A stretch of DNA of 64,000 nt from NCBI GenBank assembly GCA_028554795.2, contig CM068829.1:131837325-131901324 (forward strand), written 5' to 3'. The position numbers were made by a program, and so were the translations under genes. This document shows, piece by piece, positions 18,095 through 38,303 of the stretch. Position 1 is the stretch's first letter. Every line of letters begins with the position of its first letter. Under the pieces are notes generated by a model. The model had not been told where the DNA came from and ran no database searches. It was given only the letters and a program-made list of their open reading frames with translations. The DNA is from Sinohyriopsis cumingii. Lineage: Eukaryota > Mollusca > Bivalvia > Unionida > Unionidae.

Positions 18095-18099
18095 TCATT

Positions 18100-18250
18100 A
18101 GCAGCAGAGAGGGCGATCAGACCACTTCAGGGAATGGTCACCCTTGTTTTAAGAAGAAAAAAAAATAGTGACCCTTCATAGAGGTCAATACCACGTCTAC
18201 GATTATTGTTTGTTCCAAACAGAATTGTAGACAAGGCCCTCTCTGCTGCT
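18100..18250. repeat. Element A left terminal unit with motif at both edges
   Basis: This 151-bp unit begins AGCAGCAGAGAGGGCG and ends GGCCCTCTCTGCTGCT, the inverse of its own start. The element end motif therefore occurs twice: once at the true end and once, inverted, at the inner edge. The first gene stops immediately inside. The Polinton TIRs have the same design. Confidence 0.85.
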
Positions 18251-18253
18251 ATG

Positions 18254-18535
18254 TTATTCTGAATAATCCTGGGAATCTTCATCTGAATCCTGGGAATTTG
18301 TTCTATGTTTCAAGTAATATTCAAGTTCTGATGGTGGTTTTTCTATTTTTGGATTTATGTTTTTTCTTTTTCTGTAATATATCATCAAACTTCTGTATCG
18401 ATCTCCAACGCAATTTTTGCAAATCTGATATAATCCTCTAACACCGTTGTTACATCCAACACAACTTCGTGGACCAGCATGAGGGTTTTTCTTTCTAAGA
18501 TAATTATGTTTATTGCAATATTCTCCACGGCGCAT
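18254..18535 (-). CDS. Small Cys-rich protein, 93 aa (left arm copy)
   Basis: Intact 93-codon frame. Cys positions pair up as C-x2-H near residue 7, CVGC near 25-28 and CKNC near 39-42, followed by DRYRSL and a basic tract, then an acidic Ser/Asp-rich tail. The Cys pairs suggest a zinc-binding fold. The core pattern (G-P-R-S-C-x2-C, G-V-R-G, C-x2-C, R-Y-R) recurs in the gene at 19278-19460 and, more loosely, in the Polinton gene at 36192-36386, so this is a protein family shared by both elements. It stops 4 bp inside the terminal unit. GCGGGAA motifs lie upstream. Function unknown; small nucleic-acid-binding or regulatory protein is my guess. Both arm copies are intact and differ by one residue (N8 versus E8), unlike every larger gene. 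Confidence 0.7.
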   Translation of the reverse strand: MRRGEYCNKHNYLRKKNPHAGPRSCVGCNNGVRGLYQICKNCVGDRYRSLMIYYRKRKNINPKIEKPPSELEYYLKHRTNSQDSDEDSQDYSE

Positions 18536-18611
18536 TTGTTAGTGGTTCCTTGACCCGGGCTTGTTTTCAGACAAATGAGTTTAATATCATTGCAGGAACA
18601 AAATAATGTGA

Positions 18612-18955
18612 AATCAGACGCGCGGGAACAAGTAATATTTACACACAGAAACATCATCATGAAAAAAGATTCACGACAAGACCGACGGGAAACAAAATAA
18701 CGTTTAACAAAATAATTTCACAATATGCGGGAACAATCAAATCAGTTTAATAATTATGACCTTATTTTCATCATCATCACAGAATTGTCAAAATTATAAA
18801 TATAATGCTGGGTTTATGTTATTGATTGGCCCTCGCCCCACTCATCATTGAGGTTGTCGCAAGTGGCACATTCCTTATAATAATACTGTTTGTGCCACTT
18901 GCGACAGTCATCAACATACGAAAACAACACGCGGGAAACATCCGCGCGGAAAAAA
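18612..18955. promoter_or_regulatory. Repeated GCGGGAA(A) motifs, left arm
   Basis: GCGGGAAC or close variants occur at about 18622, 18685 (ACGGGAAA), 18727, 18931 (GCGGGAAA) and 18943 (GCGCGGAAA). Several are followed by ACAA(A)ATAA. The motif is close to the known E2F site (TTTCCCGC). It lies upstream of the 93-aa Cys-rich gene and beside hairpin 1. It could be a promoter element or part of an origin region; E2F binding is inference. Confidence 0.4.
18855..18906. repeat. Hairpin 1: 16-bp perfect stem, AT-rich 20-nt loop (left arm)
   Basis: TGTCGCAAGTGGCACA at 18855-18870 is followed by 20 nt rich in A/T and then its exact inverse at 18891-18906. A decayed second unit follows: the same loop sequence (CCTTATAATAATACTG) and one half-site (TGCCACTTTCCACA) at 19010-19044. 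A candidate origin or initiator-binding site; see the hairpins at 23137-23277. Confidence 0.75.
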
Positions 18956-19277
18956 AAACAATTATTTTGTCTTACCAAGATCATCATCTCGCTGCAGAAT
19001 CTTCCTTAATCCTTATAATAATACTGATTATGCCACTTTCCACAATCATTAGCTCCTGAATCACGATGATAAATACTCCTCCAACGATGGTCGTTCTTGT
19101 TCGATATTCAACCATTAATCTTGGAAATCTTCATCAGAATAATCAGAAGAAATTCCACGTGGATTATTTCACAATCATCACGACATGGGGGAACTTTCAT
19201 AAATATATAATATTATAATGGATATGAGACTTCCCCCATCACCATAATCATGTGTGTTAAATTCAATAATTATTTTT

Positions 19278-19460
19278 TTACGAAGATAAGAACTCCTCTA
19301 AGGTTGGAATTGGTTTATTTGTCCTTGTGTTATATTCGACAATTAATCGATATCTTGTTACGCCGCAATCTATACACAACGGAATTTTACCACGAACTCC
19401 ACGAGAGCAGCTAATACAACTCCGAGGTCCACATGAGCCGTTATATCGGTAGATTTTCAT
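19278..19460 (-). CDS. Small Cys-rich protein, 60 aa (left arm copy)
   Basis: Sixty codons starting MKIYR. Contains CGPRSCISC, GVRGK and CIDCGVTRYR, the same core as the 93-aa protein (GPRSCVGC, GVRG, CKNC, DRYR). Four to five Cys in two C-x2-C pairs point to a small zinc-binding protein. Divergent from the primase gene (start at 19621) with about 160 bp between. The mirror copy in the right arm is broken. Confidence 0.6.
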   Translation of the reverse strand: MKIYRYNGSCGPRSCISCSRGVRGKIPLCIDCGVTRYRLIVEYNTRTNKPIPTLEEFLSS

Positions 19461-19620
19461 GTGGTCACCACAAAAAATACTTCTACAGTTTTTTCCGCAT
19501 ATTTCGGTTGACCCCTGAGGAAGCCAAGCGCATTTGTTGACAATCTTATATTTAATATCTTATATATTTAATTGGTGATTAAAAAAAACAATCAATTAGA
19601 TATATAGATATTAATTATAA

Positions 19621-22600
19621 ATGACAGAAAAAAATTACTTAAGTGAACTCTGTGGTGCGGGTAATATAACCGAAGTATATATTACAAACAAAACTTTAAA
19701 AGAAAAATATTTGTGTCTCGAGAACGACCCGACTTTTACGCTAGACACGCTATTCGACAACATTACCAACGAAGACGCGCGTGTGTTATCTAGAAGAAGT
19801 TATTTCATATTGCGCGATTATTATAATATTTTCTCCGTCTCAACGTTAGATGAATCTGTCTCAGTAAAAACTAAAGAAGAAGCAATTCAGGCGCTTCAAT
19901 CTGAATGTAAATCAACATATCATCTGTCTTGTGTGATTATTCAACACTTTAAAAACTTTTACATATTTCCGTCCGACGAAGACTTTGAATCAGTCGCGGA
20001 TAAGTTTTTAGGGCTATCATCCGTTACTGAAATTATACCGAAATTCAGATTGAGATATCCTGTATTCGACATCGACTCGTTCTTCAAACAATACCGAGAA
20101 CGCATCAGTTACAGATATTTCATGGGAACCTCGAAAGACTCAGAAGAAAAGACTCTCTCACGAAGAAATTATTGATTATTTTTCTCGGTTGTGTAATTGT
20201 GACCGCGATAAAATATTTTTATTCACATCGACACATGGATATCATGTACTGTGTAAATGTGAACCCGTGTCATTCGATGATCAGATAGAATTAATTGACA
20301 AAGCCGGTAAGGATAATTCAACATGGAAGCTTGATAAACAAGCAGGATTACACAGCATCAAGTTGGCCGGGACAAAATCGAATAAAATTAATTCTGTCTG
20401 TAAAAGATTAATATCAGGACAAACTACAACGCCGCGAGATCTACTTTGTTGTCCTACGTTAATCCAACCACGCGAAATAGAATATATCAAACCGCCTCAA
20501 AGTGATCTTGGTGATTATGCCAATGAGATCTCCCAGCAGGATCTCGAGAAAATATCGATCGAGTTAACTGGAGAACCAGATCAAGTAATTACCGTCACTG
20601 CGTCGTCGAGAAACAGATTAACAGTCCAGCGACGACCAGGACACTATTGCAATATATGCCAACGACGTCATGGTTGGAATGAGATTAATGATCATCCTGA
20701 AGATAAATGCGACAACTGTTTGATATATGTCCACGCAGATAACTTTGTTGTTACCTGCCCTCGTAGTAACGGAAAAATAATCATGCAAAACAATTACGAT
20801 AAACAGATACGCGAGTACTTCGCGAGGGCAACCAATAACGTCGTTGATGATGTAGTTAAATCATTACCGGAGGACCAGAACAATCCGGAATATTTTAAAT
20901 ATTTGATGTCGGCCAAATACAGAAAAAAAAAACTCACCCTGGAACATTTATCGATAAGACACCCAGTTACAGCTACACGAGTAAACCATTACACGAGTCT
21001 GGACCGGGATGTAAAATCATCTACGGCGATTACATGGATGGATCTTACTGTGGTATGGGAAAATCTAGTGCGGCAATATCATCGATAAACGAAGATGATT
21101 CTGTGCTGTATTTATCCTACCGAATCGCCTTTACCGAGAAAGTTAAGACCGATTACGGATTTGAGTTTACGGATTTGAGACTTACAGGGACATCACAGGC
21201 GATATTGTCCTCGGCAAATCAAGAAAAGTAATAGTTCAGTGGGAGTCTTTGTTACGCGTAGAAGGAGTTCCTGACGTGATTATTGTTGATGAATTACACG
21301 GAATAATGCGTCAATGTTATTCAGGTTGTAACAAAAATATATTCGATAAATTCGCCGGACTAATCGCGATGGCTCCTCGTGTTATCGTGGCCGATGTCGA
21401 CGCGAACAACGAGGATTTGATTCTATTTCGCGATAAACTAAACCGCGTTGACATGAAATTCGTTATGAATAAATATAAACCCGATCACGGTAAGAAATTC
21501 ATCGTGGAAAACGCTCATAAAGATAATTATGTTAATCTTCTGAGACATTTATCAAGCGGGAAACGAGCTGTAATCTTTACACATAACTAACTGAACGGGT
21601 CGTACTCCGTTGAGGAACTCGCGAAACAATTACAACATCTAAAATATCGCGTCAAATACTATCACGCCGATACCAACGCGGCAGAACGAGCAAAGGATTT
21701 CTCAGACATAAGTAACGCATTCAATGACGTTGATGTTGTAATATTCAACCACACCATAGAAGCTGGTATCAGTATCGTCGATGATCGATTTAAGGTATTA
21801 TTCGTGTTCTCGTCTGAACTAGGATCAGTCGAAGCGACTAAACAAGCCATTCACAGATTTAGGTACGTTGATGAGATTCACTGTTCATCAATATCTAAGG
21901 CCTATACAAATCTACATGCGACCAGGGACGACATAATAACAACTATCATCAACAACGAGAAGAATCTCACTGAGAAGGAAAAATCATTCAGAATGCCAAC
22001 TCCAGGAGAACTAACCACGCCGTTCGGGTACGCGTTTATCAGCTACATCATCGAAGAAAATAACTCCAAGATGTACTTTACGCCGCGACTAATAGAGACA
22101 ATGAGAAACAGCGGATACGAGATAGTACAAACTGAACCTGATGAATACAAACTATGGCTGACAAAAAAAAAAAATATGAAAAAAGCTACACGCGATGAGA
22201 TTAAGGCCGATCCCGTCGTTGATGAGTTCCTTAAGACGTCAATCGGGACAAGAATAAAAAATGCTGCTGATGAAAATATTATCACCAACGAGGATAATGT
22301 TACTGATGAAAATATTATTACTAGCAATGACGCCAGTGAAGATAACGTTACCAATGAAGATACTGTTACTAACAATGACGCCAATAATACCAGCGATGAT
22401 GATTTACCGAAATATTATCGATACCGAGCGAATGATAATCTAGAACCGTATGAGAAAAAATTAAAGTACATGAACTATTTGTTCCAGCGCGATTGTTCCA
22501 AACTAAGCGAAGATGAAATAGAATACCTCCACAAGAAATCCACTCAGATGAAACGAGCGCAATAAATTTAATAACGTAGATATCACAGAAACATTTAGAT

Positions 22601-23127
22601 CAGATAAATTGGCTCCTCGAGAAAAATTAACAATAATCCGCGACGTCCTTGAAATGTTTTCGTTGCCTGACATTGTTCCTGACAATTTATCAGTGACATC
22701 TGTAACGGTACATCGAGGTAAACTTATATCAGACATCGAGGCCGCGATGGCCAATCCAGATCACGTGGAAAAGTATAATAATTTTATCAGACATTTCTCA
22801 ACAATATTCCCTGAATCACACAGATTAAGATCAACAAAATTGACCACAAAAAATATCATCGAGAAAATCAAATCGATATATAAAGGATTCGCCGCGGAAA
22901 TGAAACCTAATGACATTAATCACGCTAATCGAGGTGATTATACGATATATTATCCTAGCTGGCCTGAATCAGATTTTATTAATAACGATGTGTGGAAAAA
23001 TACGCTAACCCCCGAGGAAGGTTATTTTGGTGGTAATGATATCAAGATTGTCGATGATCATACCAGATGGCACAAATATCACATTTGGATCATAAATAGA
23101 TGGTTCAGCAGATATGAAGATCAATAA
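19621..23127 (+). pseudogene. Primase-helicase (AEP primase, zinc ribbon, herpes OBP-type SF2 helicase), left arm, broken
   Basis: Would prime and unwind DNA at element origins. Visible in order: ATG at 19621; primase motif I FDID at 20065-20076; primase motif II STHGYH near 20228-20246; zinc ribbon CNICQRRH with CDNC and CPRSNGK at 20645-20790, like the UL52/PrimPol type; P-loop GMGKSS near 21050-21070; SYRIAF; DExH box VDELHG at 21286-21303; VIFTHN; IEAGISI; and the arginine motif QAIHRFR at 21843-21863. The order of helicase motifs and the DELH box fit the Herpes_ori_bp family. Breaks: frame change near 20150-20175, extra A in the run near 20930, a 14-bp tandem duplication near 21160-21187, stop TAA at 21588-21590, 14-bp loss near 22563. 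The C-terminal third is Asp/Asn-rich (tandem acidic repeats near 22265-22400) and unrecognised. Confidence 0.85.
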
Positions 23128-23300
23128 TCTGATGACTGGCGAAAGTGGCACAAACAATATATTTATTAGGAATGTACTACTTTCGCCACACATAAGATAA
23201 TGTGAGATAACTAATCTGATGACTGGCGAAAGTGGCACAAAACATATATATATATATGGAAAAAGCCACTTTCGCCACACACAAGATAATGTGAGATAAA
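23126..23300. repeat. Hairpins 2 and 3 in an 87-bp direct repeat (left arm)
   Basis: Two tandem units (from 23126 and 23213) each start AATCTGATGACTGGCGAAAG and end with a GATAATGTGAGATAA phrase. Hairpin 2: TGGCGAAAGTGGCACA 23137-23152 against TGTACTACTTTCGCCA 23173-23188 (two mismatches), AT-rich loop. Hairpin 3: TGGCGAAAGTGGC 23224-23236 against its exact inverse 23265-23277, separated by 28 nt containing an alternating (TA) run. Two inverted boxes around an AT-rich centre is the layout of herpes simplex oriS, whose boxes are bound by the UL9 helicase; this element encodes a UL9-type helicase ending at 23127, just beside. The box sequence itself is not the herpes one. Replication origin is inference. 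Confidence 0.65.
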
Positions 23301-23349
23301 TTTAATACCCTAATGATAATCCGAGGGCCTTTTTTCGCCGATCATTGGA

Positions 23350-23684
23350 GAGATTCATTTCTGGATCAAACTACAATATCAGAACATCTAAAATTGCATG
23401 GAGCGTTAATGGATGATTCAAGTTATTTGATCATGGGATGAGTTAAACACAAAAAAAAAACCCATTAATTTTTCTCACCATATGTCAGGGTCATAAATGA
23501 AGTATTATAAATAAAAATTCATGTCATAAATATATTTAACATCTTGATTGATGACGTCACACGTTCGGACTTTATCAACGGAGAAATATAACTAACGACG
23601 TTAGGTATGTAAATACATAACCACTGACCTGTGGAAGATTCAAACATATACTGATGATACATCAGTTAATGAAATTAATTATAA
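23350..23684. other. Spacer non-coding part
   Basis: Unique sequence between the arms, upstream of the spacer gene. AT-rich, contains an A run at 23452-23461 and TGACGTCA at 23569-23576, a perfect CRE/ATF palindrome that may be a promoter element of the coiled-coil gene. No other gene seen. Confidence 0.4.
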
Positions 23685-24344
23685 TATGACCTCAACGAAG
23701 AAGATATTCATCGATATGTCCGATGACAGATTCGTGAAAAACAAACCTGCTGCTGAATCTAAAGTATTTATTTGGTGGTGTTAATGCGATATATATCAAT
23801 GATCATGGTGTTGGATTTTCAGATAAACGTTCAATCACACCACTGAACCGAGATGAACTAGCACGAAGACGTCTACGTGAGAAATATCGCATCAGAAAAA
23901 TAATTACAAAGCCGCATCGAATAGTATTGAATCAAGTAACAGTAATGTCAGATTAATCAACAAGACTGATGATGACAGGGCCGCATCGAATAGTATTGAA
24001 TCTAGTAACAAGACTGAATCAAGTAACAAATCCGAATCGAAAATCTTAAAATGCAAAAATAAACTAAAATCAACCCAAACTTCATTAGATAATCTGACCG
24101 AGGAGAATAATCAACTAAAAAAAGATTTAAGTGAAACAAAGGACCAGTGCAACAAAGTTCTCGAGGATAATAAAACACTGCAGCAGATTTTCACAAAAAT
24201 AAACAACAGAGTCAACGAGGACATGAATAAATCGTTAAACGAGTATAGCAGCGAGATCATCGCGAAGATGAACAACGTGGCTGAGCAGCAGAAACAATCC
24301 AATGATCGGCGAAAAAAGGCCCTCGGATTATCATTAGGGTATTA
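23685..24344 (+). pseudogene. Coiled-coil protein spanning the spacer and the right-arm edge, broken
   Basis: An ATG at 23685 opens MTSTKKIFIDMSDD. Coding similarity to itself continues through two frame changes (near 23775 and near 23905) into a long third frame that ends at TAA 24342-24344. The middle has a basic stretch (RDELARRRLREKYRIRK) followed by Ser/Asn-rich sequence; the last ~110 codons are Lys/Glu/Asn-rich with heptad-like Leu/Ile spacing (LTEENNQLKKDLSETK), a probable coiled coil. The last 15 or so codons lie inside the right arm, so the left arm carries their inverted copy (23306-23349). No family recognised; the basic region plus coiled coil recalls DNA-binding dimerising proteins, which is only a resemblance. 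Confidence 0.55.
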
Positions 24345-24345
24345 A

Positions 24346-24521
24346 ATTTATCTCACATTATCTTGTGTGTGGCGAAAGTGGCTTTTTCCATATATATATA
24401 TATATGTTTTGTGCCACTTTCGCCAGTCATCAGATTAGTTATCTCACATTATCTTATGTGTGGCGAAAGTAGTACATTCCTAATAAATATATTGTTTGTG
24501 CCACTTTCGCCAGTCATCAGA
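24346..24521. repeat. Hairpins 2 and 3 mirror (right arm)
   Basis: Hairpin 3 mirror: stems 24370-24382 and 24413-24425 around the same (TA) run. Hairpin 2 mirror: 24461-24512 with the same two mismatches in the stem. They lie directly after the stop of the right-arm helicase gene (24522). Confidence 0.65.
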
Positions 24522-27500
24522 TTATTGATCTTCATATCTGCTGAACCATCTATTTATGATCCAAATGTGATATTTGTGCCATCTGGTATGATCATCGACA
24601 ATCTTGATATCATTACCACCAAAATAACCTTCCTCGGGGGTTAGCGTATTTTTCCACACATCGTTATTAATAAAATCTGATTCAGGCCAGCTAGGATAAT
24701 ATATCGTATAATCACCTCGATTAGCGTGATTAATGTCATTAGGTTTCATTTCCGCGGCGAATCCTTTATATATCGATTTGATTTTCTCGATGATATTTTT
24801 TGTGGTCAATTTTGTTGATCTTAATCTGTGTGATTCAGGGAATATTGTTGAGAAATGTCTGATAAAATTATTATACTTTTCCACGTGATCTGGATTGGCC
24901 ATCGCGGCCTCGATGTCTGATATAAGTTTACCTCGATGTACCGTTACAGATGTCACTGATAAATTGTCAGGAACAATGTCAGGCAACGAAAACATTTCAA
25001 GGACGTCGCGGATTATTGTTAATTTTTCTCGAGAAGCCAATTTATCTGATCTAAACGTTTCTGTGATATCTACGTTATTAAATTTATTCACGATTACCTG
25101 TTGCGCTCGTTTCATCTGAGTGGATATCTTGTGGAGGTATTCTATTTCATCTTCGCTTAGTTTGGAACAATCGCGCTGGAACAAATAGTTCATGTACTTT
25201 AATTTTTTCTCATACGGTTCTAGATTATCATTCGCTCGGTATCGATAATATTTCGGTAAATCATCATCGCTGGTATTATTGGCGTCATTGTTAGCAACAA
25301 TATCTTCATTGGTAACGTTATCTTCACTGGCGTCATTACTAGTAATAATATTTTCATCAGTAACATTATCCTCGTTGGTGATAATATTTTCATCAGCAGC
25401 ATTTTTTATTCTTGTCCCGATTGACGTCTTAAGGAACTCATCAACGACGGGATCGGCCTTAATCTCATCGCGTGTGGCTTTTTTCATATTTTTTTTTGTC
25501 ATCCATAGTTTGCATTCATCAGGTTCAGTTTGTACTATCTCGTATCCGCTGTTTCTCATTGTCTCTATTAGTCGCGGCGTAAAGTACATCTTGGAGTTAT
25601 TTTCTTCGATGATGTAGCTGATAAACGCGTACCCGAACGGCGTGGTTAGTTCTCCTGGAGCTGGCATTCTGAATGATTTTTCCTTCTCAGTGAGATTCTT
25701 CTCGTTGTTGATGATAGTTGTTATTATGTCGTCCCTGGTCGCATGTAGATTTTTATAGGCCTTAGATATTGATGAACAGTGAATCTCATCAACGCACCTA
25801 AATCTGTGAATGGCTTGTTTAGTCGCTTCGACTGATCCTAGTTCAGACGAGAACACGAATAATACCTTAAATCGATCATCGACGATACTGATACCAGCTT
25901 CTATGGTGTGGTTGAATATTACAACATCAACGTCATTGAATGCGTTACTTATGTCTGAGAAATCCTTTGCTCGTTCTGCCGCGTTGGTATCGGCGTGATA
26001 GTATTTGACGCGATATTTTAGATGTTGTAATTGTTTCGCGAGTTCCTCAACGGAGTACGACCCGTTCAGTTTGTTATGTGTAAAGATTACAGCTCGTTTC
26101 CCGCTTGATAAATGTCTCAGAAGATTAACATAATTATCTTTATGAGCGTTTTCCACGATGAATTTCTTACCGTGATCGGGTTTATATTTATTCATAACGA
26201 ATTTCATGTCAACGCGGTTTAGTTTATCGCGAAATAGAATCAAATCCTCGTTGTTCGCGTCGACATCGGCCACGATAACACGAGGAGCCATCGCGATTAG
26301 TCCGGCGAATTTATCGAATATATTTTTGTTACAACCTGAATAACATTGACGCATTATTCCGTGTAATTCATCAACAATAATCACGTCAGGAACTCCTTCT
26401 ACGCGTAACAAAGACTCCCACTGAACTATTACTTTTCTTGATTTGCCGAGGACAATATCGCCTGTGATGTCCCTGTAAGACTCAAATCCGTAAACTCAAA
26501 TCCGTAATCGGCCTTAACTTTCTCGGTAAAGGCGATTCGGTAGGATAAATACAGCACAGAATCATCTTCGTTTATCGATGATATTGCCGCACTAGATTTT
26601 CCCATACCACAGTACGATCCATCCATGTAATCGTCGTAGATGATTTTACATCCCGGTCCAGACTCGTGTAATGGTTTACTCGTGTAGCTGTAACTGGGTG
26701 TCTTATCGATAAATGTTCCAGGGTGAGTTTTTTTTCTGTATTTGGCCGACATCAAATATTAAACATATTCCGGATTTTTCTGGTCCTCCGGTAATGATTT
26801 AACTACATCATCAACGACGTTATTGGTTGCCCTCGCGAAGTACTCGCGTATCTGTTTATCGTAATTGTTTTGCATGATTATTTTTCCGTTACTACGAGGG
26901 CAGGTAACAACAAAGTTATCTGCGTGGACATATATCAAACAGTTGTCGCATTTATCTTCAGGATGATCATTAATCTCATTCCAACCATGACGTCGTTGGC
27001 ATATATTGCAATAGTGTCCTGGTCGTCGCTGGACTGTTAATCTGTTTCTCGACGACGCAGTGACGGTAATTAATTGATCTGGTTCTCCAGTTAACTCGAT
27101 CGATATTTTCTCGAGATCCTGCTGGGAGATCTCATTGGCATAATCACCAAGATCACTTTGAGGCGGTTTGATATATTCTATTTCGCGTGGTTGGATTAAC
27201 GTAGGACAACAAAGTAGATCTCGCGGCGTTGTAGTTTGTCCTGATATTAATCTTTTACAGACAGAATTAATTTTATTCGATTTTGTCCCGGCCAACTTGA
27301 TGCTGTGTAATCCTGCTTGTTTATCAAGCTTCCATGTTGAATTATCCTTACCGGCTTTGTCAATTAATTCTATCTGATCATCGAATGACACGGGTTCACA
27401 TTTACACAGTACATGATATCCATGTGTCGTTGTGAATAAAAATATTTTATCGCGGTCACAATTACACAACCGAGAAAAATAATCAATAATTTCTTCGTGA

Positions 27501-28036
27501 GAGAGTCTTTTCTTCTGAGTCTTTCGAGGTTCCCATGAAATATCTGTAACTGATGCGTTCTCGGTATTGTTTGAAGAACGAGTCGATGTCGAATACAGGA
27601 TATCTCAATCTGAATTTCGGTATAATTTCAGTAACGGATGATAGCCCTAAAAACTTATCCGCGACTGATTCAAAGTCTTCGTCGGACGGAAATATGTAAA
27701 AGTTTTTAAAGTGTTGTATAATCACACCAGACAGATGATATGTTGATTTACATTCAGATTGAAGCGCCTGAATTGCTTCTTCTTTAGTTTTTACTGAGAC
27801 AGATTCATCTAACGTTGAGACGGAGAAAATATTATAATAATCGCGCAACATGAAATAACTTCTTCTAGATAACACACGCGCGTCTTCGTTGGTAATGTTG
27901 TCGAATAGTGTGTCTAGCGTAAAAGTCGGGTCGTTCTCGAGACACAAATATTTTTCTTTTAAAGTTTTGTTTGTAATATATACTTCGGTTATATTACCCG
28001 CACCACAGAGTTCACTTAAGTAATTTTTTCTGTCAT
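24522..28036 (-). pseudogene. Primase-helicase, right arm, broken
   Basis: Inverted copy of 19621-23127. The C-terminal 629 codons (24522-26411), from just before the DELH box to the end, are open here, so this arm shows the helicase core and tail without interruption. The rest is broken: the shared 14-bp duplication near 26485-26512, an inserted base near 26760, the shared frame change near 27480-27505, and a lost A just after the start (about 28022). The zinc ribbon and both primase motifs remain visible (26890-27060, 27420, 27575-27600). Two of the breaks are identical to the left arm, which means they predate arm duplication or were spread by gene conversion. Confidence 0.85.
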
Positions 28037-28196
28037 TTATAATTAATATCTATATATCTAATTGATTGTTTTTTTAATCACCAATTAAATATATAAGATA
28101 TTAAATATAAGATGGTCAACAAATGAGCTTGGCTTCCTCAGGGGTCAACCAAAATATGCGGAAAAAACTGTAGAAGTATTTTTTGTGGTGACCACA

Positions 28197-28375
28197 TGAA
28201 AATCTACCGAAATAACGGCTCATGTGGACCTCGGAGTTGTATTAGCTGCTCTTGTGGAGTTCGTGGTAAAATTCTGTTGTGTATAGATTGGGCTGAACAA
28301 GATATCGATTAATTGTCGAATATAACACAAGGACAAATAAACCAATTCCAACCTTAGAGGAGTTCTTATCTTCGT
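28197..28375 (+). pseudogene. Small Cys-rich protein, broken right-arm copy
   Basis: Mirror of 19278-19460. It begins MKIYRNNGSCGPRSC but the second Cys pair is altered: a small deletion after the first Cys of CIDC (about 28289) shifts the frame and a stop follows at about 28310. The 3' part of the left-arm gene is still recognisable in another frame. Confidence 0.7.
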
Positions 28376-28689
28376 AAAAAAATAATTATTGAATTTAACA
28401 CACATGATTATGGTGATGGGGGAAGTCTCATATCCATTATAATATTATATATTTATGAAAGTTCCCCCATGTCGTGATGATTGTGAAATAATCCACGTGG
28501 AATGTCTTCTGATTATTCTGATGAAGATTTCCAAGATTAATGGTTGAATATGGAACAAGAACGACCATCGTTGGAGGAGTATTTATCATCGTGATTCAGG
28601 AGCTAATGATTGTGGAAAGTGGCATAATCAGTATTATTATAAGGATTAAGGAAGATTCTGCAGCGAGATGATGATCTTGGTAAGACAAA

Positions 28690-29125
28690 ATAATTGTTTT
28701 TTCCGCGCGGATGTTTCCCGCGTGTTGTTTTCGTATGTTGATGACTGTCGCAAGTGGCACAAACAGTATTATTATAAGGAATGTGCCACTTGCGACAACC
28801 TCAATGATGAGTGGGGCGAGGGCCAATCAATAACATAAACCCAGCATTATATTTATAATTTTGACAATTCTGTGATGATGATGAAAATAAGGTCATAATT
28901 ATTAATCTGATTTGATTGTTCCCGCATATTGTGAAATTATTTTGTTTCCTCGCGAATCGTTTCTCATACTGATGTTCCCGCATATTGTGAGATTATTTTG
29001 TTTCCGTGTGATTTGTTTCCCCTGCGCCAATTAAACGTTATTTTGTTTCCCGTCGGTCTTCTCGTGAATCTTTTTTCATGATGATGTTTCTGTGTGTAAA
29101 TATTACTTGTTCCCGCGCGGCTTAT
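28690..29125. promoter_or_regulatory. Repeated TTCCCGC motifs, right arm
   Basis: Mirror of the left-arm cluster with more copies because of the local duplication: TTTCCCGC or TTCCCGC at about 28715, 28919, 28976, 29048 (TTTCCCGT) and 29111, plus the related TTTCCTCGC. Several are followed by ATATTGTGAAATTATTTTGT. Confidence 0.4.
28746..28797. repeat. Hairpin 1 mirror (right arm)
   Basis: Same 16-bp stem and AT-rich loop as 18855-18906, stem perfect in both arms. The half-site unit is mirrored at 28610-28645. Confidence 0.75.
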
Positions 29126-29202
29126 TTCTCATTATTTTGTTCCTGCAATGATATTAAACTCATTTGTCTGAAAACAAGCCCGGGTCAAGGAACCACTAAC
29201 AA

Positions 29203-29484
29203 ATGCGCCGTGGAGAATATTGCGAAAAACATAATTATCTTAGAAAGAAAAACCCTCATGCTGGTCCACGAAGTTGTGTTGGATGTAACAACGGCGTTAG
29301 AGGATTATATCAGATTTGCAAAAATTGCGTTGGAGATCGATACAGAAGTTTGATGATATATTACAGAAAAAGAAAAAACATAAATCCAAAAATAGAAAAA
29401 CCACCATCAGAACTTGAATATTACTTGAAACATAGAACAAATTCCCAGGATTCAGATGAAGATTCCCAGGATTATTCTGAATAA
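29203..29484 (+). CDS. Small Cys-rich protein, 93 aa (right arm copy)
   Basis: Mirror of 18254-18535, intact, with a single residue change near the start (Glu for Asn). All Cys residues, the RYRSL segment and the acidic tail are kept. Preservation in both arms while the primase-helicase is broken in both may mean selection, or only that the gene is a small target. Confidence 0.7.
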   Translation: MRRGEYCEKHNYLRKKNPHAGPRSCVGCNNGVRGLYQICKNCVGDRYRSLMIYYRKRKNINPKIEKPPSELEYYLKHRTNSQDSDEDSQDYSE

Positions 29485-29487
29485 CAT

Positions 29488-29639
29488 AGCATCAGAGAGG
29501 GCCTTGTCTACAATTCTGTTTGGAACAAACAATAATCGTAGATGTGGTATTGACCTCTATGAAGGGTCACTATTTTTTTCTTCTTCTAAAAACAAGGGTG
29601 ACCATTCCCTAAAGTGGTCTGATCGCCCTCTCTGCTGCT
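29488..29639. repeat. Element A right terminal unit
   Basis: Inverted copy of 18100-18250. Its inner edge reads AGCATCAGAGAGGG (one change from AGCAGCAG), while the outer edge is intact. Confidence 0.85.
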
Positions 29640-29654
29640 TCATTTCATTCAATG

Positions 29655-30254: not shown

Positions 30255-30493
30255 AGCAGCAGGGAGGGCGAATCCTACAAATTTTAGATGGTTCCAAATC
30301 GTAAACTAAGGCCTTCATCGAAACGAAAAAAAAAATCATCCAATGATCGAGTCACAATAACTAACCGGGAGGGGAACCCCCGACGTTGTTAGCGCTGTGT
30401 TGACTCGATCATTGGGTAGTTGTTTTTTTCGTTTCGATGAAGGCCTTAGTTTACGCGACGAACCCAACTTGTTGTCGCACCCTCCCTGCTGCT
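30255..30493. repeat. Polinton left TIR, itself double-ended and fold-back
   Basis: Begins AGCAGCAGGGAGGGCG and ends ACCCTCCCTGCTGCT, its own inverse. Internally 30302-30352 pairs with 30402-30453 (GATGAAGGCCTTAGTTTAC and its inverse), enclosing a GGGAGGGGAACCCCC segment. So each TIR resembles a free-standing fold-back unit. Confidence 0.92.
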
Positions 30494-30498
30494 ATCAT

Positions 30499-31167
30499 TT
30501 ATCCAAAAATCGTATCAAGACCGACTCGGTATCTTGTTCTGGGATCATGCAAATTTATTGTTACAAATCCGTGCGGATTTGCTTGCGCTCGTGAAAAGAA
30601 ATTTTTAAACTTATTTATGTCCATATCACCGCTACACCAGGTCTGATGAATATTTGGTAACGTGTGTGTATCAACTCCGTTAAACACAGCAAGAATATTA
30701 CAATTATCTCTGATCACTTTTGGTATTTGTGTATATCGTTGAGTGACATAAATCACATCTGTGTTTTTGTGTCTGCCTCTGGAAAATATCCTAGCTGGAT
30801 ATGATTGTTTATCAAGCATTATATCATCGTACACGAATAAATTGTTAATAAACCCATCAATGGAATCTACAGACGGTGCTTCACTAATATCAGTGATAAA
30901 CTCGATAACATCATCGCCGTTTTCATTTAACGATTTTGCATTTTCATTAAAATCCTTTAGTACATCATAGCACCGCTGGTCATCTACAGACGGAGCTACC
31001 AAATACAATTTATCCCACCTGAACCATCTCATTATCAAATTAAGTAACAGTTGTGTTTTACCACTTCCAGATGGTCCTATAATAATCATACGGACAGAAT
31101 TTGGTAGCGCTGCATGATGCTTGACTGGTTCTTGTTTTCGTGTTGCAGAAAAATCAATTACATTCAT
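30499..31167 (-). CDS. A32/FtsK-type genome packaging ATPase
   Basis: Intact 222-codon frame from the ATG at 31167 (MNVIDFSATRK); the frame is open 25 codons further upstream but the TIR-proximal divergent neighbour starts at 31184, and Polinton ATPases are this short. Walker A GPSGSGKT lies at residues 31-38, Walker B LFVYDDIML near residue 115, and a VIYVTQR sensor-like strand follows. The family pumps DNA into preformed capsids of DJR-capsid viruses and Polintons. The only clearly intact large gene in this element. Stop is six bases inside the left TIR, so its 3' UTR is the TIR. Confidence 0.93.
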   Translation of the reverse strand: MNVIDFSATRKQEPVKHHAALPNSVRMIIIGPSGSGKTQLLLNLIMRWFRWDKLYLVAPSVDDQRCYDVLKDFNENAKSLNENGDDVIEFITDISEAPSVDSIDGFINNLFVYDDIMLDKQSYPARIFSRGRHKNTDVIYVTQRYTQIPKVIRDNCNILAVFNGVDTHTLPNIHQTWCSGDMDINKFKNFFSRAQANPHGFVTINLHDPRTRYRVGLDTIFG

Positions 31168-31183
31168 GGTATATACAAAGAAT

Positions 31184-31717
31184 ATGGATTTATATTGTGT
31201 GAAATGCAGGACACGTACCCCAACAGGTGATCTAACAACCATTGCAACAAAAATAACAGATCAGCGGTCACGGGTAAGTGTGAACGATGCGGTACAAAGA
31301 AATTTAAATTTATTCCCGCTGACAAGTCAGTGCAGTCGGGTTTAAAAAAAAAGACGAGGAGGTGATATTGCGGCAAAATTAGGAAAATTACCGGGAACTT
31401 CGTGGGCTAAATATCCAGGAGAAAAACATCTTCCAGGATATAATTACTGCGGCCCTGGAACCAGACTTGATATCAGACTTGACAGCCAAGACCAACCAAA
31501 ACCAGGTGAGTACCCAATAAACGCTATTGATAAAGCGTGTTATGCTCATGATTTAGCTTATCGAGTAAAGGATCTGCAGCATAGGCATATCGCAGATGTA
31601 AAATTAATTCACGCGCTAAATTCCAACAGTGATAAATCTTTCAAGGAAAGGTTAGCTAGTTGGTTAATAAAATCCGCGATGAAAGGTAAATTAGCGCTAG
31701 GTGCTGGTAATTTATAA
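31184..31717 (+). pseudogene. Zinc ribbon plus phospholipase A2-like protein, broken
   Basis: N-terminus MDLYCVKCRT with a second pair CERCGTKK about 30 residues on forms a zinc ribbon; then a PLA2-like domain with the Ca-loop type YCGPGT near 31450-31467 and the catalytic dyad region DKACYAHDLAY near 31530-31562. Such domains occur in parvovirus capsid proteins, where they breach endosomal membranes, and in Polinton and adenovirus-like relatives. Two frame changes split it: near 31255 in the ribbon and in the A-run at 31344-31353. Starts 16 bp from the divergent ATPase start, so a shared promoter is likely; the stop directly adjoins the integrase. Confidence 0.8.
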
Positions 31718-32700
31718 ATGGAATCGATTTTGTTATTCCCTAAGAGGATACTGGAAGGGTATCGCAGCGATTAGTAAACTCGCCGAAGCGGCGAAAGTCA
31801 CACGTGCTACTGCTAAAAAATGGTTATCCCGACAGGCAATATGGCAAATTTTTCTACCACCAGCTGAACAAATTCACTTTGCACATTTTGATGTTAGTGT
31901 TCCTAATGAAGTTCATCAAGCTGATATATTGTTTCTACCACATGATACCGTTAAAATCCAAAGACGTCAAATAACATACAAGTACGCGCTAACTGTAGTT
32001 GACGTTGCAAGTAGAAACAAAGAAGCAGAGCCGTTATCAACAAAGACAGCAACTGAAGTAGCTTCTGCGTTTAAACGAATTTATCAACGTGGACCCTTGC
32101 AATGGCCACAGCTGTTACAAGTTGATCCTGGTAAAGAATTTCAGGGCGCAGTATCATCGTTGATGAAACAACATAACGTCACCATCAGACGAGGGCATAC
32201 TGAGATTCATCGTGATCAGGCAATTGTTGAACGATTTAATCGAACACTTGCTGAGCGGTTATTTGGATATCAATATGCAAAGGAATTCATTCAAGACAAG
32301 AGATCTCGTGAATGGGTTGCAAGATTACCAAGCGTGATAACTGCATTAAATAATGAAATAACTCGAACAACCAACATGAAACCCATTAGCGCAGTCACAA
32401 AAAACATACCCGTACAACGACGTGATTTTTCAACAGAACCGGTGCTGGGCAATGACACTGTAAGATATTTATATCAACCCGGTGAACTTGAAGGCTGTAT
32501 AAAAAGAGCGACTGATCCTATTTGGAGCATCAAGACACAAGATCTCTAACATAACAAGATCCTCGGGTAGACCCGCAATCTACAGTCTGGATTCAACTGC
32601 TCCTCAGCGCGGATTTACACGTGAGCAATTACAAGTAATTCCCAAAGACACACAATTACCACCCAGATCACTTAACTTGCACCTCTACGTCGATTACATT
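31701..32700 (+). pseudogene. Retroviral-type (RVE) integrase of Polinton type, broken near the C-terminus
   Basis: A 282-codon open frame (31701-32549). Order: helical N-terminal region (GYWKGIAAISKLAEAAKV), linker FDVSVPNEVHQAD, RNase H-like core with D75 (HQADILF), D142 (LLQVDPGKEF) and E177 (AIVERFNRTL); D142 and E177 are 35 apart as in retroviral integrases. The C-terminal SH3/chromo-like tail continues in another frame from about 32540 to 32700 (YSLDSTAPQRGF). No ATG is in the main frame before the domain, so the 5' end is also damaged. It would insert the element and create the short target duplication. Confidence 0.93.
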
Positions 32701-32907
32701 CAAGACAGGTCCGCATCACATTTTCTCGTGTATTACCGTGGATGTTATCTTTTCTGTATACGGTAAACTGTCTTGGGTGTTTATTCGAATACTGCCATAA
32801 CATTACACAATTACAGCTCGCACAGTGATTATTCTGATGTTGTTTCAGCGTGTTGATAAATTCAACGTCGAGATCAAAATCGCGTTTATTTTTTTTTTTT
32901 TGTGGCT
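32701..32907. other. Convergent intergenic region
   Basis: Lies between the 3' ends of integrase (+) and polymerase-helicase (-). Contains an A/T run at 32889-32899 and no gene. Probable shared 3' processing region. Confidence 0.4.
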
Positions 32908-35900
32908 TTATTTATAACCAGCTAAGTTTTTTTTTCTTATATCGCTGTCACACTTGTCAATGTCTTTAATTTTATTGGTCATTGACTCATCTAAGATAAT
33001 TCTTCGTAGCTGAGATATTCTTCTGACTCTGGGCACCGCCAAGTAAACTAAGTTCGACCATTCGATGTGATCATCAATGATCCAAGCAACTGTGTCAGTG
33101 ATAGTCAGTCCTTGTGATGAGTGAATTGTCATCGCATATCCTAGCGTCCACGGGGAATTATCAGCGTGTAGAGCATCCTCAACAACACTGACATCAACTA
33201 CGACAATATCATTCAACACAAGATTCTGTTTCTTGACTCTGTCAAGTGTCCTGATATATCAACGTCAATATTCTGCCGTCGCGTATCAGCCGGTCGATAA
33301 CACAGCGGCACTGGCAATGTTGAAAATTTTTCTTTATGTAACTGAAACAACCGCTGTTGAAGTGTGTCTCTGACTATCTTTCTACTTGCCACTATTAAAT
33401 CGTTTGGTCTCCATGTTTCCCAAAAGTCGTTCATAGAAGTTTCTGAAATTATTTTACGCGCTATTTCACATTGAATTTTGTTCGGCTGTAGTCTGATTAA
33501 TTTTTTAAATTCCTTTAATTCTGCATCAAGAGATCTGTGATCATCAGTTATCTCCGACTAATAATCAACAAAATTCTTCAGCCAATCATGTGGAGATGGC
33601 CCAACAAACGGCGGTGATTGACCGTGATCGCCGCACATTATCACAGCTGTATTTTTCAATAACAACCAATTGAGAAATGTTTTTAGTGTTTCCAACGACA
33701 CTGTGCACACTTCATCCCAAATGATGATCTTTGGAATATATTTCTCTCCCATTCGATATGGAGTCCACACACCGCCGCTGTATTAAGTACAAGAATTAAT
33801 TCCTCGTTGTTTCATCTCCCTGGCGAGTCCGTGTGTTGGTGTTAGCACAATCATATCATCATGTTTCTGTCGAAATAATTCGATTACCCGAGTTGTCTTA
33901 CCAGAACCCCCCGGTCCGTTCAAATAAACCATTTTATGTCTGGATACTGGATCATACACGGATGGCTCCGACGATAATTCTGATAATTCTGATTTGTAAT
34001 AACTATCTTTAACCGCAACATCCGCGGATTCACAATAACAATGTAACATTTCTTTTTTTATTCTCCACGAATCCCATGATTCATCAGTGCTTGTGAAACG
34101 AGCCAGTAATTCTGAATATTTTTTATTCAAGTAAAATGAATACGTTGCAACTCTATCTGCGGTGTCAGGAAATCTATTTATCATCGATAGCAAATTTAAA
34201 GAAACATAAGCTAGCACTGAAGATCTTAAATGTGTATACTGAGGAGATTCTCCATCAGTGTAACTAACAATTGTGCCCAACCGTGTTCTGTCAGAGAAGT
34301 AAGCGTCTTCCCGATTACAAAATATATTTCTCGCAGCGGCATCAGCAATTATAAAATCTAATTCAACATCATCCATAATCAATCGTGAGTGATGCCGTTT
34401 ATGATCATATGAACCACCCTGAGTAAATTTACCGATTATTTTTCTACCGAGATCCTTTGCGGTTTTTTCACTGTTGCTGAGCTTAATCCTGAGAATATTA
34501 GGAGCATCATCGACGATGACATCAATAGGAACGTTTGGACATTCCCGCGCATATTTTTCGATGACCTCGTCTACGTTGATACGCTCCAAACTGAAGTCTG
34601 CGTCCGATATGCTATAATTGCTTCACTGACCGTCAACGATATTAATACGCGGTTGTCAAGCATATATCGTAATGACACTATTGGTGCCCAGCGTTGCTCC
34701 GAGAAGTGTCTACCAAACCAAACATAACAACACGGATGAAGATTCTTAGCGAATTCAAACGACACTACACGAGCGAATCCTGTCAGGGGGAAATCAGGTA
34801 ACGATCCATTGATCGCCACTCGTGTCATCTCGTTTGTAGGATGTCCGAATCTTTTAAAATATCCATCATACTCACCCATCCCGAGAAAACTTCCCGGATA
34901 ACACGCGATCATGTCCACGGAAATGACATCCTTGTGGTTATATTCGGTATTCCACAAACAGCTATGTCCATATTCAATACAACTCGCCTGAATATCTTCG
35001 AGGAACTCAGCGTGTGTTGGTCTCCATGAATTTCTCTCTCTTGCGGAGTGGGCCGCAACTGACGGAACTGTAAAACAATTAGTTAATAATTGCTCAGTAT
35101 TTTCTGAATATTTTTCCGCGAGTTTTCTCACTGCGCGTTGGAGAGATTCTTTGCGATATAAATCGCCGTTGGGTCTTACAAATTGATCGTATTCTTCATC
35201 TTCGGAACTCTTAAACAACCACACTGAAACGGGATCGTTTTTACTTATCTGTTTAATAAAATCAAACATACCCACCCACCCCCCCAGAAAATTCTGGGGA
35301 GTAATATCTCACGACACGATCTCGTGGAAATATTGTTACTGCGCTGGTCCACGCGTGAGCGTTATGGTCAATGATATTTATTGGAGCTCCGTTCCGATTA
35401 TATTTCGATTCGTACAATACTTTTCCTGTTATTGTTTTTACGGTTATTGGGAATCTTAATATTTTTTCTAACTCAGAGACATCGTTTATTGTAGCTCCCT
35501 TATCCTTGACTCAATCAGCCCATTTGTTTATTTTTTCACGTAGTAGATCGGTTAAACCGTTTCCAAGCCTCACATTTGTAAAATATTCCATTACTCGCTC
35601 GGCTACACAATTCAGTTTGGAAAATCTCATCGGGGCAAGATCATTAATGTTAGGTCTATCATTTAGTTGATAAATTCCATAAATAACCGCGGTCACAGGA
35701 TACGATCTAGCGTAATATGGTCTGTCAATCCCAGTTAACATTCCTGGTTTGGAATCTTTACTTAACACAGCGGTTTTTGCATTAGCAAGGACGGGATCAC
35801 GTTTGTCACGGATAATCCACATATCGGAATCTGCTTGCACAATAAACTTTATTTTGAGAGGATATTTCTGATTAAGGTAATCGATAATCGTTTTCGCTCG

Positions 35901-36129
35901 TGTATTGTTCATTGTAGCATCAATGACAGAGTCCTTGACAGAGACATCGCGTACAATTTTGAATGTAGACCACACCTGAGATGGTCCATCATCACGAAAT
36001 TCTTTTTTGGCACCAGTGATAATATCAATCAGATCAGTCAGAGCTCGCCTCCGCAGGGGTTAGTCTGTCGAGATCGAATCTAGAAGCTTTCCAGGGCTTG
36101 ATTCTGGATAATCTCTCAAACTCATCCAT
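32908..36129 (-). pseudogene. Family-B DNA polymerase fused to SF1 helicase, broken
   Basis: ATG at 36129 (MDEFERLSRIKPWK). Polymerase part: N-terminal region to 35511; motif A DMIACYPGSF near 34890-34920; IIGKFTQGGSY near 34410-34445 at the position of motif B; then YTHLRSS...LLSMINRF. The motif C position reads VATYSFY: the codon at 34140-34142 is TAT where an Asp (T-D-S) is expected. Helicase part: P-loop NGPGGSGKTT near 33890-33925, IIIWDEV near 33720, GDHGQSPP near 33630, GYAMTIHSSQGLT near 33105-33145 and a final VPRVRR motif, as in RecD/Pif1-like SF1 enzymes. Breaks: near 36045, TGA at 35511-35513, G-run at 35275-35285, near 34580, near 33780, near 33556 and near 33215. It would replicate the element. 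Confidence 0.85.
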
Positions 36130-36191
36130 ATACAATTAAGGCAAACATTTTAATAAAAATATTATATATAATGAATCGGTGTAAATAGCTT

Positions 36192-36386
36192 ATGGTAGGA
36201 TCTGTAATTCCATGTGGCAAATCCTGTATAAAAGAATTCGTCGGGCAACGTTCACAATGTGTTCGTATTGGAAGCTTAGGACCAATACCATGTCTGCGAA
36301 GTGGTGTCGGAGTCTGGGGAAAGACACAGTTATGTGCTGGTTGTGGTGGTAAGCGATACAGGGAGCTCAAAAGATATTATGATTAA
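36192..36386 (+). CDS. Small Cys-rich protein of the Polinton, 64 aa
   Basis: Contains GSLGPIPCLRSGVGVWGK, then CAGCGGKRYRELKRYYD. The C-terminal half matches the pattern of the element A proteins (C-x2-S/C, G-V-x-G-K, C-x2-C-G, R-Y-R-x-L, Y-Y). An in-frame ATG at 36171 lies five codons before a stop at 36186, so the original start may have been upstream. Divergent from the polymerase (start 36129). Function unknown; likely zinc-binding. Confidence 0.6.
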   Translation: MVGSVIPCGKSCIKEFVGQRSQCVRIGSLGPIPCLRSGVGVWGKTQLCAGCGGKRYRELKRYYD

Positions 36387-36483
36387 AAAAATAATGACAG
36401 TGACAGAGTTATAAAACGTGAAGAGGATTATTTAAATAAGTTTTCAGACAAATTATAAATTAGACAAATACATTATTGTATAA

Positions 36484-37013
36484 ATGAATCAAGCATTTGT
36501 CAGACATCCCACCATTAAGAATTATGAAGCGTCTCGTGATGGCGTAGTTAGAAATTGTAGGCTGAAGAAACCAGTTGGTGTTGTTGATAATGCTGGTTAT
36601 CTTAGATTTACCGTTGGGAAGAAAGTTATTACAATCACAGGTTTGTATTCGAGTGTTTCTTTGGAGAGATCAAAGACGGTCTTGTGATCGATCATATTGA
36701 CAGAAACCCTCGGAACAATTCTCTTCAAAATTTACAGGCTATCACACCTAACGAAAATTCTGCTCGAGGAGGGACTGGTCGGTTTAAGAGCATTGGAAAG
36801 AGAGCGGTTAAATCTTTAAATATAGCGACCGGTGAAGAGATAATATTTCAGTCAATGAACGCGGCTGGCGAGTATTTCGGTATTCACTCGTGTTCAGTCC
36901 GACGTGTTGCAGTTAAGATAATCAAATCTTCGTTTTCATACCAGGTTGAAAGCTGGATTTCGTTTTCCTGTGTAGATACAGATAACGAAGATAACTCTGC
37001 AGCGATTGTGTAA
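36484..37013 (+). pseudogene. NUMOD-HNH homing-type endonuclease, broken
   Basis: N-terminal part (36484-36640) has a NUMOD4-like look (IKNYEASRDGVVRN). The HNH core IDHIDRNPRNNSLQNL is at 36687-36734 in a different frame, and the C-terminal part (SLNIATGEEIIFQSMNAA, 36815-36870) fits a NUMOD1 DNA-binding helix. A one-base change near 36640-36645 separates the two frames. The family cuts DNA at long sites and spreads its own gene; a free-standing copy here could have targeted empty alleles of the element. Between the Cys-rich gene and a small unknown frame. Confidence 0.8.
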
Positions 37014-37072
37014 AAGACAATTATGGAATTCCCTCCCTTGAGATTGCGCAACCCACATCATTACCAATACAG

Positions 37073-37216
37073 ATGATATATTATCCAGAAAAAGTAGAAC
37101 TAAATTCAGGTTCTATTATTTTTTTTACAGTCTGTTCTGTGTGGCGAACCGTCTATTGTATACACACTACAGGTAAACAATTCTCCGTTCTACCTGTAAG
37201 AATAACACGGAAGTAA
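37073..37216 (+). CDS. Possible 47-aa protein
   Basis: ATG at 37073 opens MIYYPEKVELNSGS and runs to TAA at 37214-37216. Hydrophobic middle, basic end. Same strand as, and just after, the HNH gene. No family recognised; it may be chance. Confidence 0.25.
   Translation: MIYYPEKVELNSGSIIFFTVCSVWRTVYCIHTTGKQFSVLPVRITRK

Positions 37217-38239: not shown

Positions 38240-38303
<64 letters not shown>
38240..38303. repeat. (AT)n microsatellite
   Basis: About 32 dinucleotides, directly preceding the SINE. Open frames of Ile-Tyr across it are artefacts. Confidence 0.97.

What the first reader, a model, noticed from the sequence alone, without database searches (positions are those of the whole stretch)
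18100..29639. An 11.5-kb inverted-duplication element with its own primase-helicase but no integrase or capsid
Seen: two ~5.3-kb inverted arms, a 948-bp spacer, matching ends and an exact 5-bp flanking duplication (TCATT), so the whole palindrome moved as one unit. Known: Polintons usually use a family-B polymerase; herpes-type origin-binding helicases are unusual in transposons. Inferred: this is an element class that replicates through a primase plus OBP-like helicase and depends on another element for integration, a satellite-like relation to Polintons. I do not recognise it as described.
Basis: partly seen in the sequence, partly recalled or inferred. Interest (0 to 1): 0.92.

Follow-up and report, generated by a model that had tools for sequence, protein, structure and literature searches.

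The report
Palindromic satellite wearing Polinton ends
This 11.5-kb stretch is a mobile DNA element built as a mirror image of itself, with its own replication gene, that has taken over the tips of a virus-like transposon (a Polinton) and so probably inserts itself using that transposon's machinery.

Summary
Observation confirmed: 18100-29639 is a palindrome (5.26/5.35-kb arms, 934-bp spacer, arms ~1% different) flanked by an exact 5-bp duplication, TCATT.

Its outer ~454 bp are the ends of a 13.5-17-kb Polinton family in the same genome. The four two-ended Polintons checked have the same tips and 5-bp duplications. The shared end cuts into the Polinton's Zn-protein gene, removing its start; three separate loci share this junction, which points to one capture with the Polinton as donor.

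The interior matches none of 8 other Polinton ORFs and encodes a primase-like domain fused to a herpes-OBP/CyRepA1-type helicase. A second copy, 11% diverged, is also palindromic, with longer arms; the window copy looks internally deleted. The window arms are nearly identical (dS <=0.008) while the copies differ (dS 0.29-0.46): arms evolve in concert. dN/dS of 0.08-0.25 between copies shows past selection. Hairpins of 50-54 bp with AT-rich loops are candidate origins.

Best reading: a palindromic replicon, satellite-like to Polintons for integration. Helper dependence, origin function and copy-back replication are inferred. The genome-wide helicase search did not complete, so copy number is unknown.

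The parts
18100..29639 (.). whole palindromic element
   Evidence: inverted arms, matching ends and 5-bp duplication
18095..18099 (.). left target-site duplication TCATT
29640..29644 (.). right target-site duplication TCATT
18100..18553 (+). left terminal repeat shared with Polinton ends; junction at 18553/18554
   Evidence: first 430 bp 85-97% to 27 Polinton ends; match stops at the junction
29186..29639 (-). right terminal repeat (same Polinton-derived end)
18236..18250 (-). inverted copy of the terminal 15 bp, 136 bp inside the end (mirror with one mismatch at 29488-29502)
18257..18529 (-). start-less fragment of the Polinton Zn-protein gene inside the left terminal repeat
   Evidence: tblastn 92% to residues 20-110 of the Polinton protein
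29209..29481 (+). same Zn-protein fragment, right end
19293..19541 (-). the element's own diverged Zn-protein gene (paralogue of the Polinton one); the right-arm copy has a stop
   Evidence: 40% aa; counterpart in L032 1353-1625
19621..23127 (+). primase-helicase gene, left arm, broken into several ORFs
   Evidence: ORFs; relatives P0001-P0004
24522..28036 (-). primase-helicase gene, right arm, broken; longest piece 24522-26411 (629 aa), primase-side piece 26759-27469
   Evidence: dN/dS 0.25 and 0.08 against L032; upper limit set by the mirror of 19621
18856..18905 (.). 50-bp hairpin with AT-rich loop, candidate replication origin (outer, left)
18994..19043 (.). decayed hairpin unit (outer, left; 8 of 15 box positions match)
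23138..23187 (.). 50-bp hairpin (inner, left)
23225..23276 (.). 52-bp hairpin (inner, left)
24371..24424 (.). 54-bp hairpin (inner, right)
24462..24511 (.). 50-bp hairpin (inner, right)
28747..28796 (.). 50-bp hairpin (outer, right)
23357..24290 (.). spacer: likely remnant of a deleted palindrome centre; 23891-24298 matches the second copy's centre-side coiled-coil gene

Best explanation
The element is an internally deleted member of a family of palindromic mobile replicons, about 15 kb when undeleted (expected from the symmetry of the second copy, whose right end is lost). Each arm carries a Zn-protein gene and a primase-helicase of the herpes-OBP/CyRepA1 type; a coiled-coil gene with a weak helix-turn-helix match lies near the centre. 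SHOWN: its outer ~454 bp derive from the same end as a Polinton family of this genome; it was inserted with the same 5-bp duplication as those Polintons; the interior lacks the Polinton ORFs tested; its helicase gene was under purifying selection between two insertions; the arms of a copy are far more alike than the copies are. INFERRED: the OBP-like protein binds the 50-54-bp hairpins and opens the DNA there; the primase starts synthesis; replication copies one arm into the other (hairpin or copy-back), so both arms come from one template; this inverted dimer presents two Polinton ends, which Polinton integrase inserts in trans. Other Polinton functions (polymerase, possibly capsid) may be borrowed too.
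For: Terminal identity with Polintons and a sharp stop at the junction. The same tips and exact 5-bp duplications at 5 of 5 two-ended elements examined (window plus 4 Polintons), whereas the literature length for Polinton is 6 bp (PMC10045372, passages). The shared end truncates the Polinton Zn ORF, with one junction in 3 of 3 palindrome-type loci. Of the 40 scored terminal matches, 34 ends are Polinton inside, 4 palindrome-type (3 loci), 2 not inspected. No primase/helicase match in 26 Polinton-type stretches (8 make up 4 copies, 18 are ~9-10 kb of a copy). OBP relation: PF02399 in P0001, P0002, P0004 and L032; CyRepA1 E 2.5e-30 over 553 residues, below its curated cut-off; top three PDB fold matches are HSV-1 OBP with oriS, from a poor model and at low TM-scores. 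Second palindromic copy. Arms differ 0.89% in the window coding region and 1.0-1.75% in four L032 samples, against 10.9% between copies. dS between window arms 0.008 (helicase piece) and 0 (primase piece), against 0.29 and 0.46 between copies. Codon positions of helicase differences between copies 46/50/101. Hairpin boxes at up to 3 mismatches: 14 in the element, 2 in L032, 2 in L036, 0 in 248.5 kb of Polinton-type loci, 2 unpaired ones elsewhere in the window; box pairs stay symmetric although their letters differ between loci.
Against: Only two palindromic copies with the helicase were seen, and the second lost its right ~0.8 kb at a minisatellite, so its duplication cannot be tested. L036 shows one end and ~980 bp only. 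The gene is broken in both window arms and also in L032. No experiment shows mobilisation. No Pfam, PHROG or NCBIfam primase model matched, and in L032 the first acidic residue of the supposed primase motif is changed. The predicted structure is poor (pLDDT 48). The hairpins are only inferred to be origins; L032 has no box at 2 mismatches and one unit at 3 in the 10 kb read. Arm identity could come from gene conversion in the chromosome.
Confidence: 0.68

Rival explanations
1. A non-autonomous Polinton: an ordinary Polinton whose interior was replaced by foreign replication genes, the palindrome being an accidental inverted duplication.
For: Same ends and duplication length; Polinton-derived gene fragment in the ends.
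Against: A second, 11% diverged insertion is palindromic too, with arms much more alike than the copies. The element has its own diverged Zn paralogue inside the junction, and its primase-helicase was under purifying selection between copies, which passive cargo need not be.
Confidence: 0.17
2. Arms are kept alike by gene conversion after insertion in the host chromosome, not by copying during replication.
For: Large palindromes elsewhere are known to convert (recalled). It would also give within-copy identity.
Against: The window arms carry single differences over much of their length with no third-position excess (codon positions 9/5/4), as expected from decay without frequent conversion since insertion. 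Not excluded.
Confidence: 0.25
3. An endogenous fragment of a large DNA virus (malacoherpesvirus or giant-virus-like) that gained Polinton ends, with no life cycle of its own.
For: Primase plus UL9-like helicase fusions are reported in Ostreid herpesvirus 1, ASFV and mimivirus (PMC11253617, passages); most named BFVD top matches are giant-virus primase or OBP proteins.
Against: Only the primase-helicase recalls such viruses; three insertions share one junction; the closest proteins come from a mussel record and from contigs without a named organism, and two IMG/VR scans found no relative.
Confidence: 0.08

Closest known systems
Polinton/Maverick (PolB, rve integrase, DJR capsid, A32 ATPase)
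   Same: terminal repeats, 15-bp tips, 5-bp duplication as in the local Polintons, Zn-protein gene near each end
   Different: no match to the integrase, capsid, ATPase, protease or PolB/helicase ORFs; palindromic; primase-OBP-type helicase instead; hairpin boxes not found in 248.5 kb of Polinton-type loci
Transpovirons (linear plasmids of giant viruses)
   Same: small replicon with a helicase and a Zn-ribbon gene living with a larger element (PMC3671162, passages)
   Different: transpovirons have an SF1 helicase and giant-virus association; this one is integrated in a 2.9-Gb genome and is a palindrome with Polinton ends
Primase-SF2 (UL9-like) fusion proteins of mimivirus, ASFV, Ostreid herpesvirus 1 and some mriyaviruses
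   Same: same protein architecture as far as the alignment and fold matches show
   Different: here in a short transposable palindrome, not a large virus genome
CyRepA1 plasmid replication proteins of cyanobacteria
   Same: helicase half matches the CyRepA1 model over 553 residues; CyRepA1 supports plasmid replication (PMC10899382, passages)
   Different: score below the curated cut-off; N-terminal primase-like domain; eukaryotic genome
Herpesvirus oriS/OBP system
   Same: OBP-type helicase plus inverted boxes around an AT-rich loop (herpes side recalled, and PDB titles)
   Different: no binding shown; boxes not compared with herpes boxes in any call

Membership tests
Polinton/Maverick | rve-type integrase | tested here: not met
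   tblastn of the local Polinton integrase finds nothing in the element or in the L032 DNA read
Polinton/Maverick | protein-primed family-B polymerase | tested here: not met
   no match of the two PolB/helicase ORFs; the PolB itself was recognised by recalled motifs only, Pfam named only the helicase part
Polinton/Maverick | capsid, A32 ATPase, protease | tested here: not met
Polinton/Maverick | terminal repeats of the local Polintons | tested here: met
Polinton/Maverick | 6-bp target duplication (literature) | tested here: not met
   5 bp in the window element and in 4 of 4 local two-ended Polintons; 6 bp stated in PMC10045372
Satellite of Polintons | shares the helper's ends and insertion signature | tested here: met
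Satellite of Polintons | lacks integrase | tested here: met
   (window copy whole; second copy: first 10 kb plus four samples of the rest)
Satellite of Polintons | mobilised only when a helper is present | not testable with these tools
   needs experiment
OBP-type (PF02399) replication helicase | PF02399 match | tested here: met
   L032 ORF E 1.7e-11 and relative P0001 E 2.2e-9, above cut-off; the window's own 629-aa piece passes the cut-off for Helicase_C only
AEP primase | AEP fold or family match | tested here: inconclusive
   no Pfam, PHROG or NCBIfam primase match; DxD, H and hD residues visible in P0001 and P0004, motif names recalled, first D changed in L032; low-confidence model
Transpoviron | SF1 helicase, giant-virus association | tested here: not met
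   SF2/OBP-type helicase; integrated in a 2.9-Gb genome

The most novel reading that the evidence does not exclude
A new class of animal mobile element: a palindromic satellite replicon of Polintons. It initiates its own replication with a primase-OBP protein at hairpin origins, turns a one-ended unit into a two-ended inverted dimer by copy-back, and keeps its captured ends matched to the helper by continued exchange with Polinton ends.
Probability: 0.42. Interest if true: 0.9.

Novelty: new variant of a known kind. Interest (0 to 1): 0.77.

Why it matters
Satellites that exploit a helper are well known for giant viruses and phages (recalled). I found no described satellite of Polintons in the library searches made (listings of an open-licence library only, so subscription papers are mostly missing). 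If true, Polintons in an animal genome support a second, parasitic replicon, which speaks for their virus-like activity. It also gives a natural test of how palindromic DNA is maintained, and a herpes-like initiation system outside viruses.

Tried and rejected
Chance inverted duplication of one copy: rejected, since a second separate palindrome exists. Window element as a truncated Polinton: rejected, none of 8 Polinton ORFs inside. Constant arm length: rejected; the second copy's arms are longer and its centre is 267 bp. Second copy as a full two-ended test: its right ~0.8 kb with the terminal repeat is lost at a minisatellite, so no duplication test. Strong constraint as the sole reason for identical ends: unlikely, because the neighbouring Polinton, with 57-86% identical proteins, has unrelated ends beyond ~17 bp; not excluded. 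Two IMG/VR scans for the helicase found no relative. PDB sequence search: nothing better than E 0.096 for the helicase piece and nothing at E<=1 for P0001. Structure model too poor for a primase call. Rfam: no match in the window. A tree of 31 terminal repeats is star-like with mostly weak support, so monophyly of palindrome-type ends was neither shown nor refuted. A third protein search with the alignment added only two short fragments. In one search the right-arm decayed hairpin was cut out of register and is not counted.
Full report
OBSERVATION. The window lies in a 2.9-Gb genome. The palindrome is real: inverted arms 18100-23356 and 24291-29639, 52 mismatches and 10 indels on alignment, a 934-bp spacer, and an exact TCATT on both sides. 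One protein relative is from a record named Potamilus streckersoni (P0003), recalled to be a freshwater mussel, so a mussel host is plausible but not shown.

ENDS. The outer 201 bp gave 40 scored matches out of 1834 first-look candidates in the genome. I inspected 38 of these 40 ends: 34 lead into a Polinton and 4 into palindrome-type DNA (both window ends, L032, L036). The other 2 lie about 16.8 kb from ends that are Polinton (seven of the 34 were judged on 250 bp only). In the copy annotated (L009/L010) the Polinton carries a double jelly-roll capsid, Pox_A32 ATPase, rve integrase, a helicase-bearing ORF and a protease match below its cut-off; PolB was read from recalled motifs only. At DNA level the window element matches Polintons only in the outer ~454 bp. 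Over the first 430 bp, 27 Polinton ends are 85-97% identical to it, 18 of 27 at 95% or more. Four two-ended Polintons, three of 16.5-17 kb and one of 13.5 kb, have the same 15-bp tips and exact 5-bp duplications (4 of 4), as does the window element. The literature value for Polinton is 6 bp (PMC10045372, passages), so this local family differs.

CAPTURE. The Polinton end contains a Zn-protein gene. The palindrome-type ends keep that gene without its start: residues 9-110 at 91% in L036, residues 20-110 at 92% in the window, where a further 10-bp gap is present. The match to Polintons stops at window 18553/18554, and L032 and L036, two other insertions, share that same junction. This is best explained by one capture with the Polinton as donor (inference). 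The element also has its own Zn gene further in, 40% identical. The 430-bp ends of the three palindrome-type loci are no closer to each other (95.5-96.0%) than to Polinton ends (best 97.0-97.4%, medians over all ends 96.0-96.3%); a pairwise alignment of the longer 454 bp puts window and L032 at 5.6% mismatch. Synonymous divergence between these two elements is 0.29-0.46. The neighbouring Polinton has 57-86% identical proteins but unrelated ends beyond ~17 bp, so long ends are not simply frozen. Continuing exchange with Polinton ends is a likely cause, but this is inference; the tree is star-like.

INTERIOR. Each arm holds a broken primase-helicase gene. An unbroken relative, P0001 (1071 aa), is 48% identical over the 629-aa piece and matches Herpes_ori_bp (E 2.2e-9); the L032 ORF matches at 1.7e-11. 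The CyRepA1 plasmid replication model matches P0001 at 2.5e-30 and L032 at 1.5e-29, below its curated cut-off. The P0001 model is poor (pLDDT 47.9), yet its top three PDB matches are HSV-1 OBP bound to oriS, at TM-scores of 0.24-0.32, and its best named viral matches are giant-virus primase or OBP proteins, with herpesvirus OBPs further down. DxD, H and hD residues typical of AEP primases (recalled) are present in P0001 and P0004; in L032 the first D is changed. No family model confirms a primase. Fusion of AEP with a UL9-like helicase is described for mimivirus, ASFV, Ostreid herpesvirus 1 and some mriyaviruses (PMC11253617, passages). None of 8 Polinton ORFs matches the element, and no primase-helicase match occurs in 26 Polinton-type stretches.

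SECOND COPY. L032 (C2:58282594 on) has the same end, the same arm (84% aa over the whole 629-aa piece; its gene is also broken) and a palindrome with a 267-bp centre (7719-7985). Four samples of its right half mirror the left at 97.7-98.75% until ~820 bp from the expected end, where a minisatellite begins; its right end was not found. Near its centre is a 366-aa ORF with a helix-turn-helix match below cut-off. The window spacer matches first left-half sequence of L032 and then sequence that lies, in that orientation, in its right half, so the window copy is best read as a palindrome that lost its centre by deletions.

CONCERTED ARMS AND SELECTION. Within the window copy the coding arms differ by 0.89%, within L032 samples by 1.0-1.75%, but the two copies differ by 10.9%. 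Between window arms dS is 0.008 (helicase piece) and 0 (primase piece); between copies it is 0.29 and 0.46. So the arms are made alike anew, either when a copy is made or by later conversion. Between copies dN/dS is 0.25 (helicase piece) and 0.08 (primase piece), with a third-position excess in the helicase piece (46/50/101). Between window arms there is no such bias (9/5/4; helicase dN/dS 0.77 on 12 changes). The gene therefore worked during the element's history and decayed after this insertion.

HAIRPINS. Units of 50-54 bp, two 15-bp inverted boxes around an AT-rich loop (0.80-0.88 AT), lie on both sides of the gene; a further outer unit is decayed (8 of 15). In L032 the inner unit has the same length and a perfectly symmetric but different box; L036 has a 51-bp unit (14 of 15). 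At up to 2 mismatches boxes number 10 in the element, 2 in L036 and 0 in L032; at up to 3, 14, 2 and 2. In 248.5 kb of Polinton-type loci there are 0 at either setting; in the rest of the window 0 and 2, the 2 unpaired. An exact inverted-repeat scan of 6 Polinton stretches found one hairpin of unrelated sequence (in L009), and a second kind of hairpin in L032. Their form recalls OBP-type origins; no binding was tested.

MECHANISM AND VERDICT. I consider it most likely that this is a palindromic replicon with its own initiator that uses Polinton integrase through captured ends: satellite-like for integration, perhaps for more. The steps shown are common ends, common duplication, a shared junction, absence of integrase in the DNA read, a recurrent palindrome, alike arms and past selection. 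The steps inferred are direction of capture, trans-integration, origin function and copy-back. Copy number is unknown because the genome search for the helicase did not complete (last try). Membership in Polintons fails on integrase, polymerase and capsid; the claim that it is moved like one stands.

Noticed in passing
window 30255-46225: A diverged Polinton (proteins 57-86% identical to the main family) lies 615 bp from the palindrome; its ends share only ~15-17 bp with it, and its flanks AAACT/AAACA differ at one base.
   Followed up: partly
window 18236-18250; 30479-30493; 45987-46001: In both the palindrome and the neighbouring Polinton the terminal 15 bp recur, inverted, 136 or 224 bp inside the end, although the two kinds of end are otherwise unrelated; function unknown.
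   Followed up: partly
L009-L016 and window: These Polintons make 5-bp rather than the 6-bp target duplications given in the literature (4 of 4 two-ended copies).
   Followed up: partly
L036 8738-9707: A third palindrome-type end with ~980 bp of family sequence and one hairpin unit, then DNA matching neither the element nor (apart from 689 bp) Polintons; either truncated or a different interior.
   Followed up: no
L032 5720-6840: Short repeated motifs between the helicase gene and the centre of the second copy (around 6079-6324).
   Followed up: no
L010 1907-5396: Two overlapping Polinton ORFs that look like a PolB (recalled motifs) followed by a helicase domain; PMC12721341 (abstract) reports an SF1 helicase-PolB fusion in a dinoflagellate element.
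   Followed up: no
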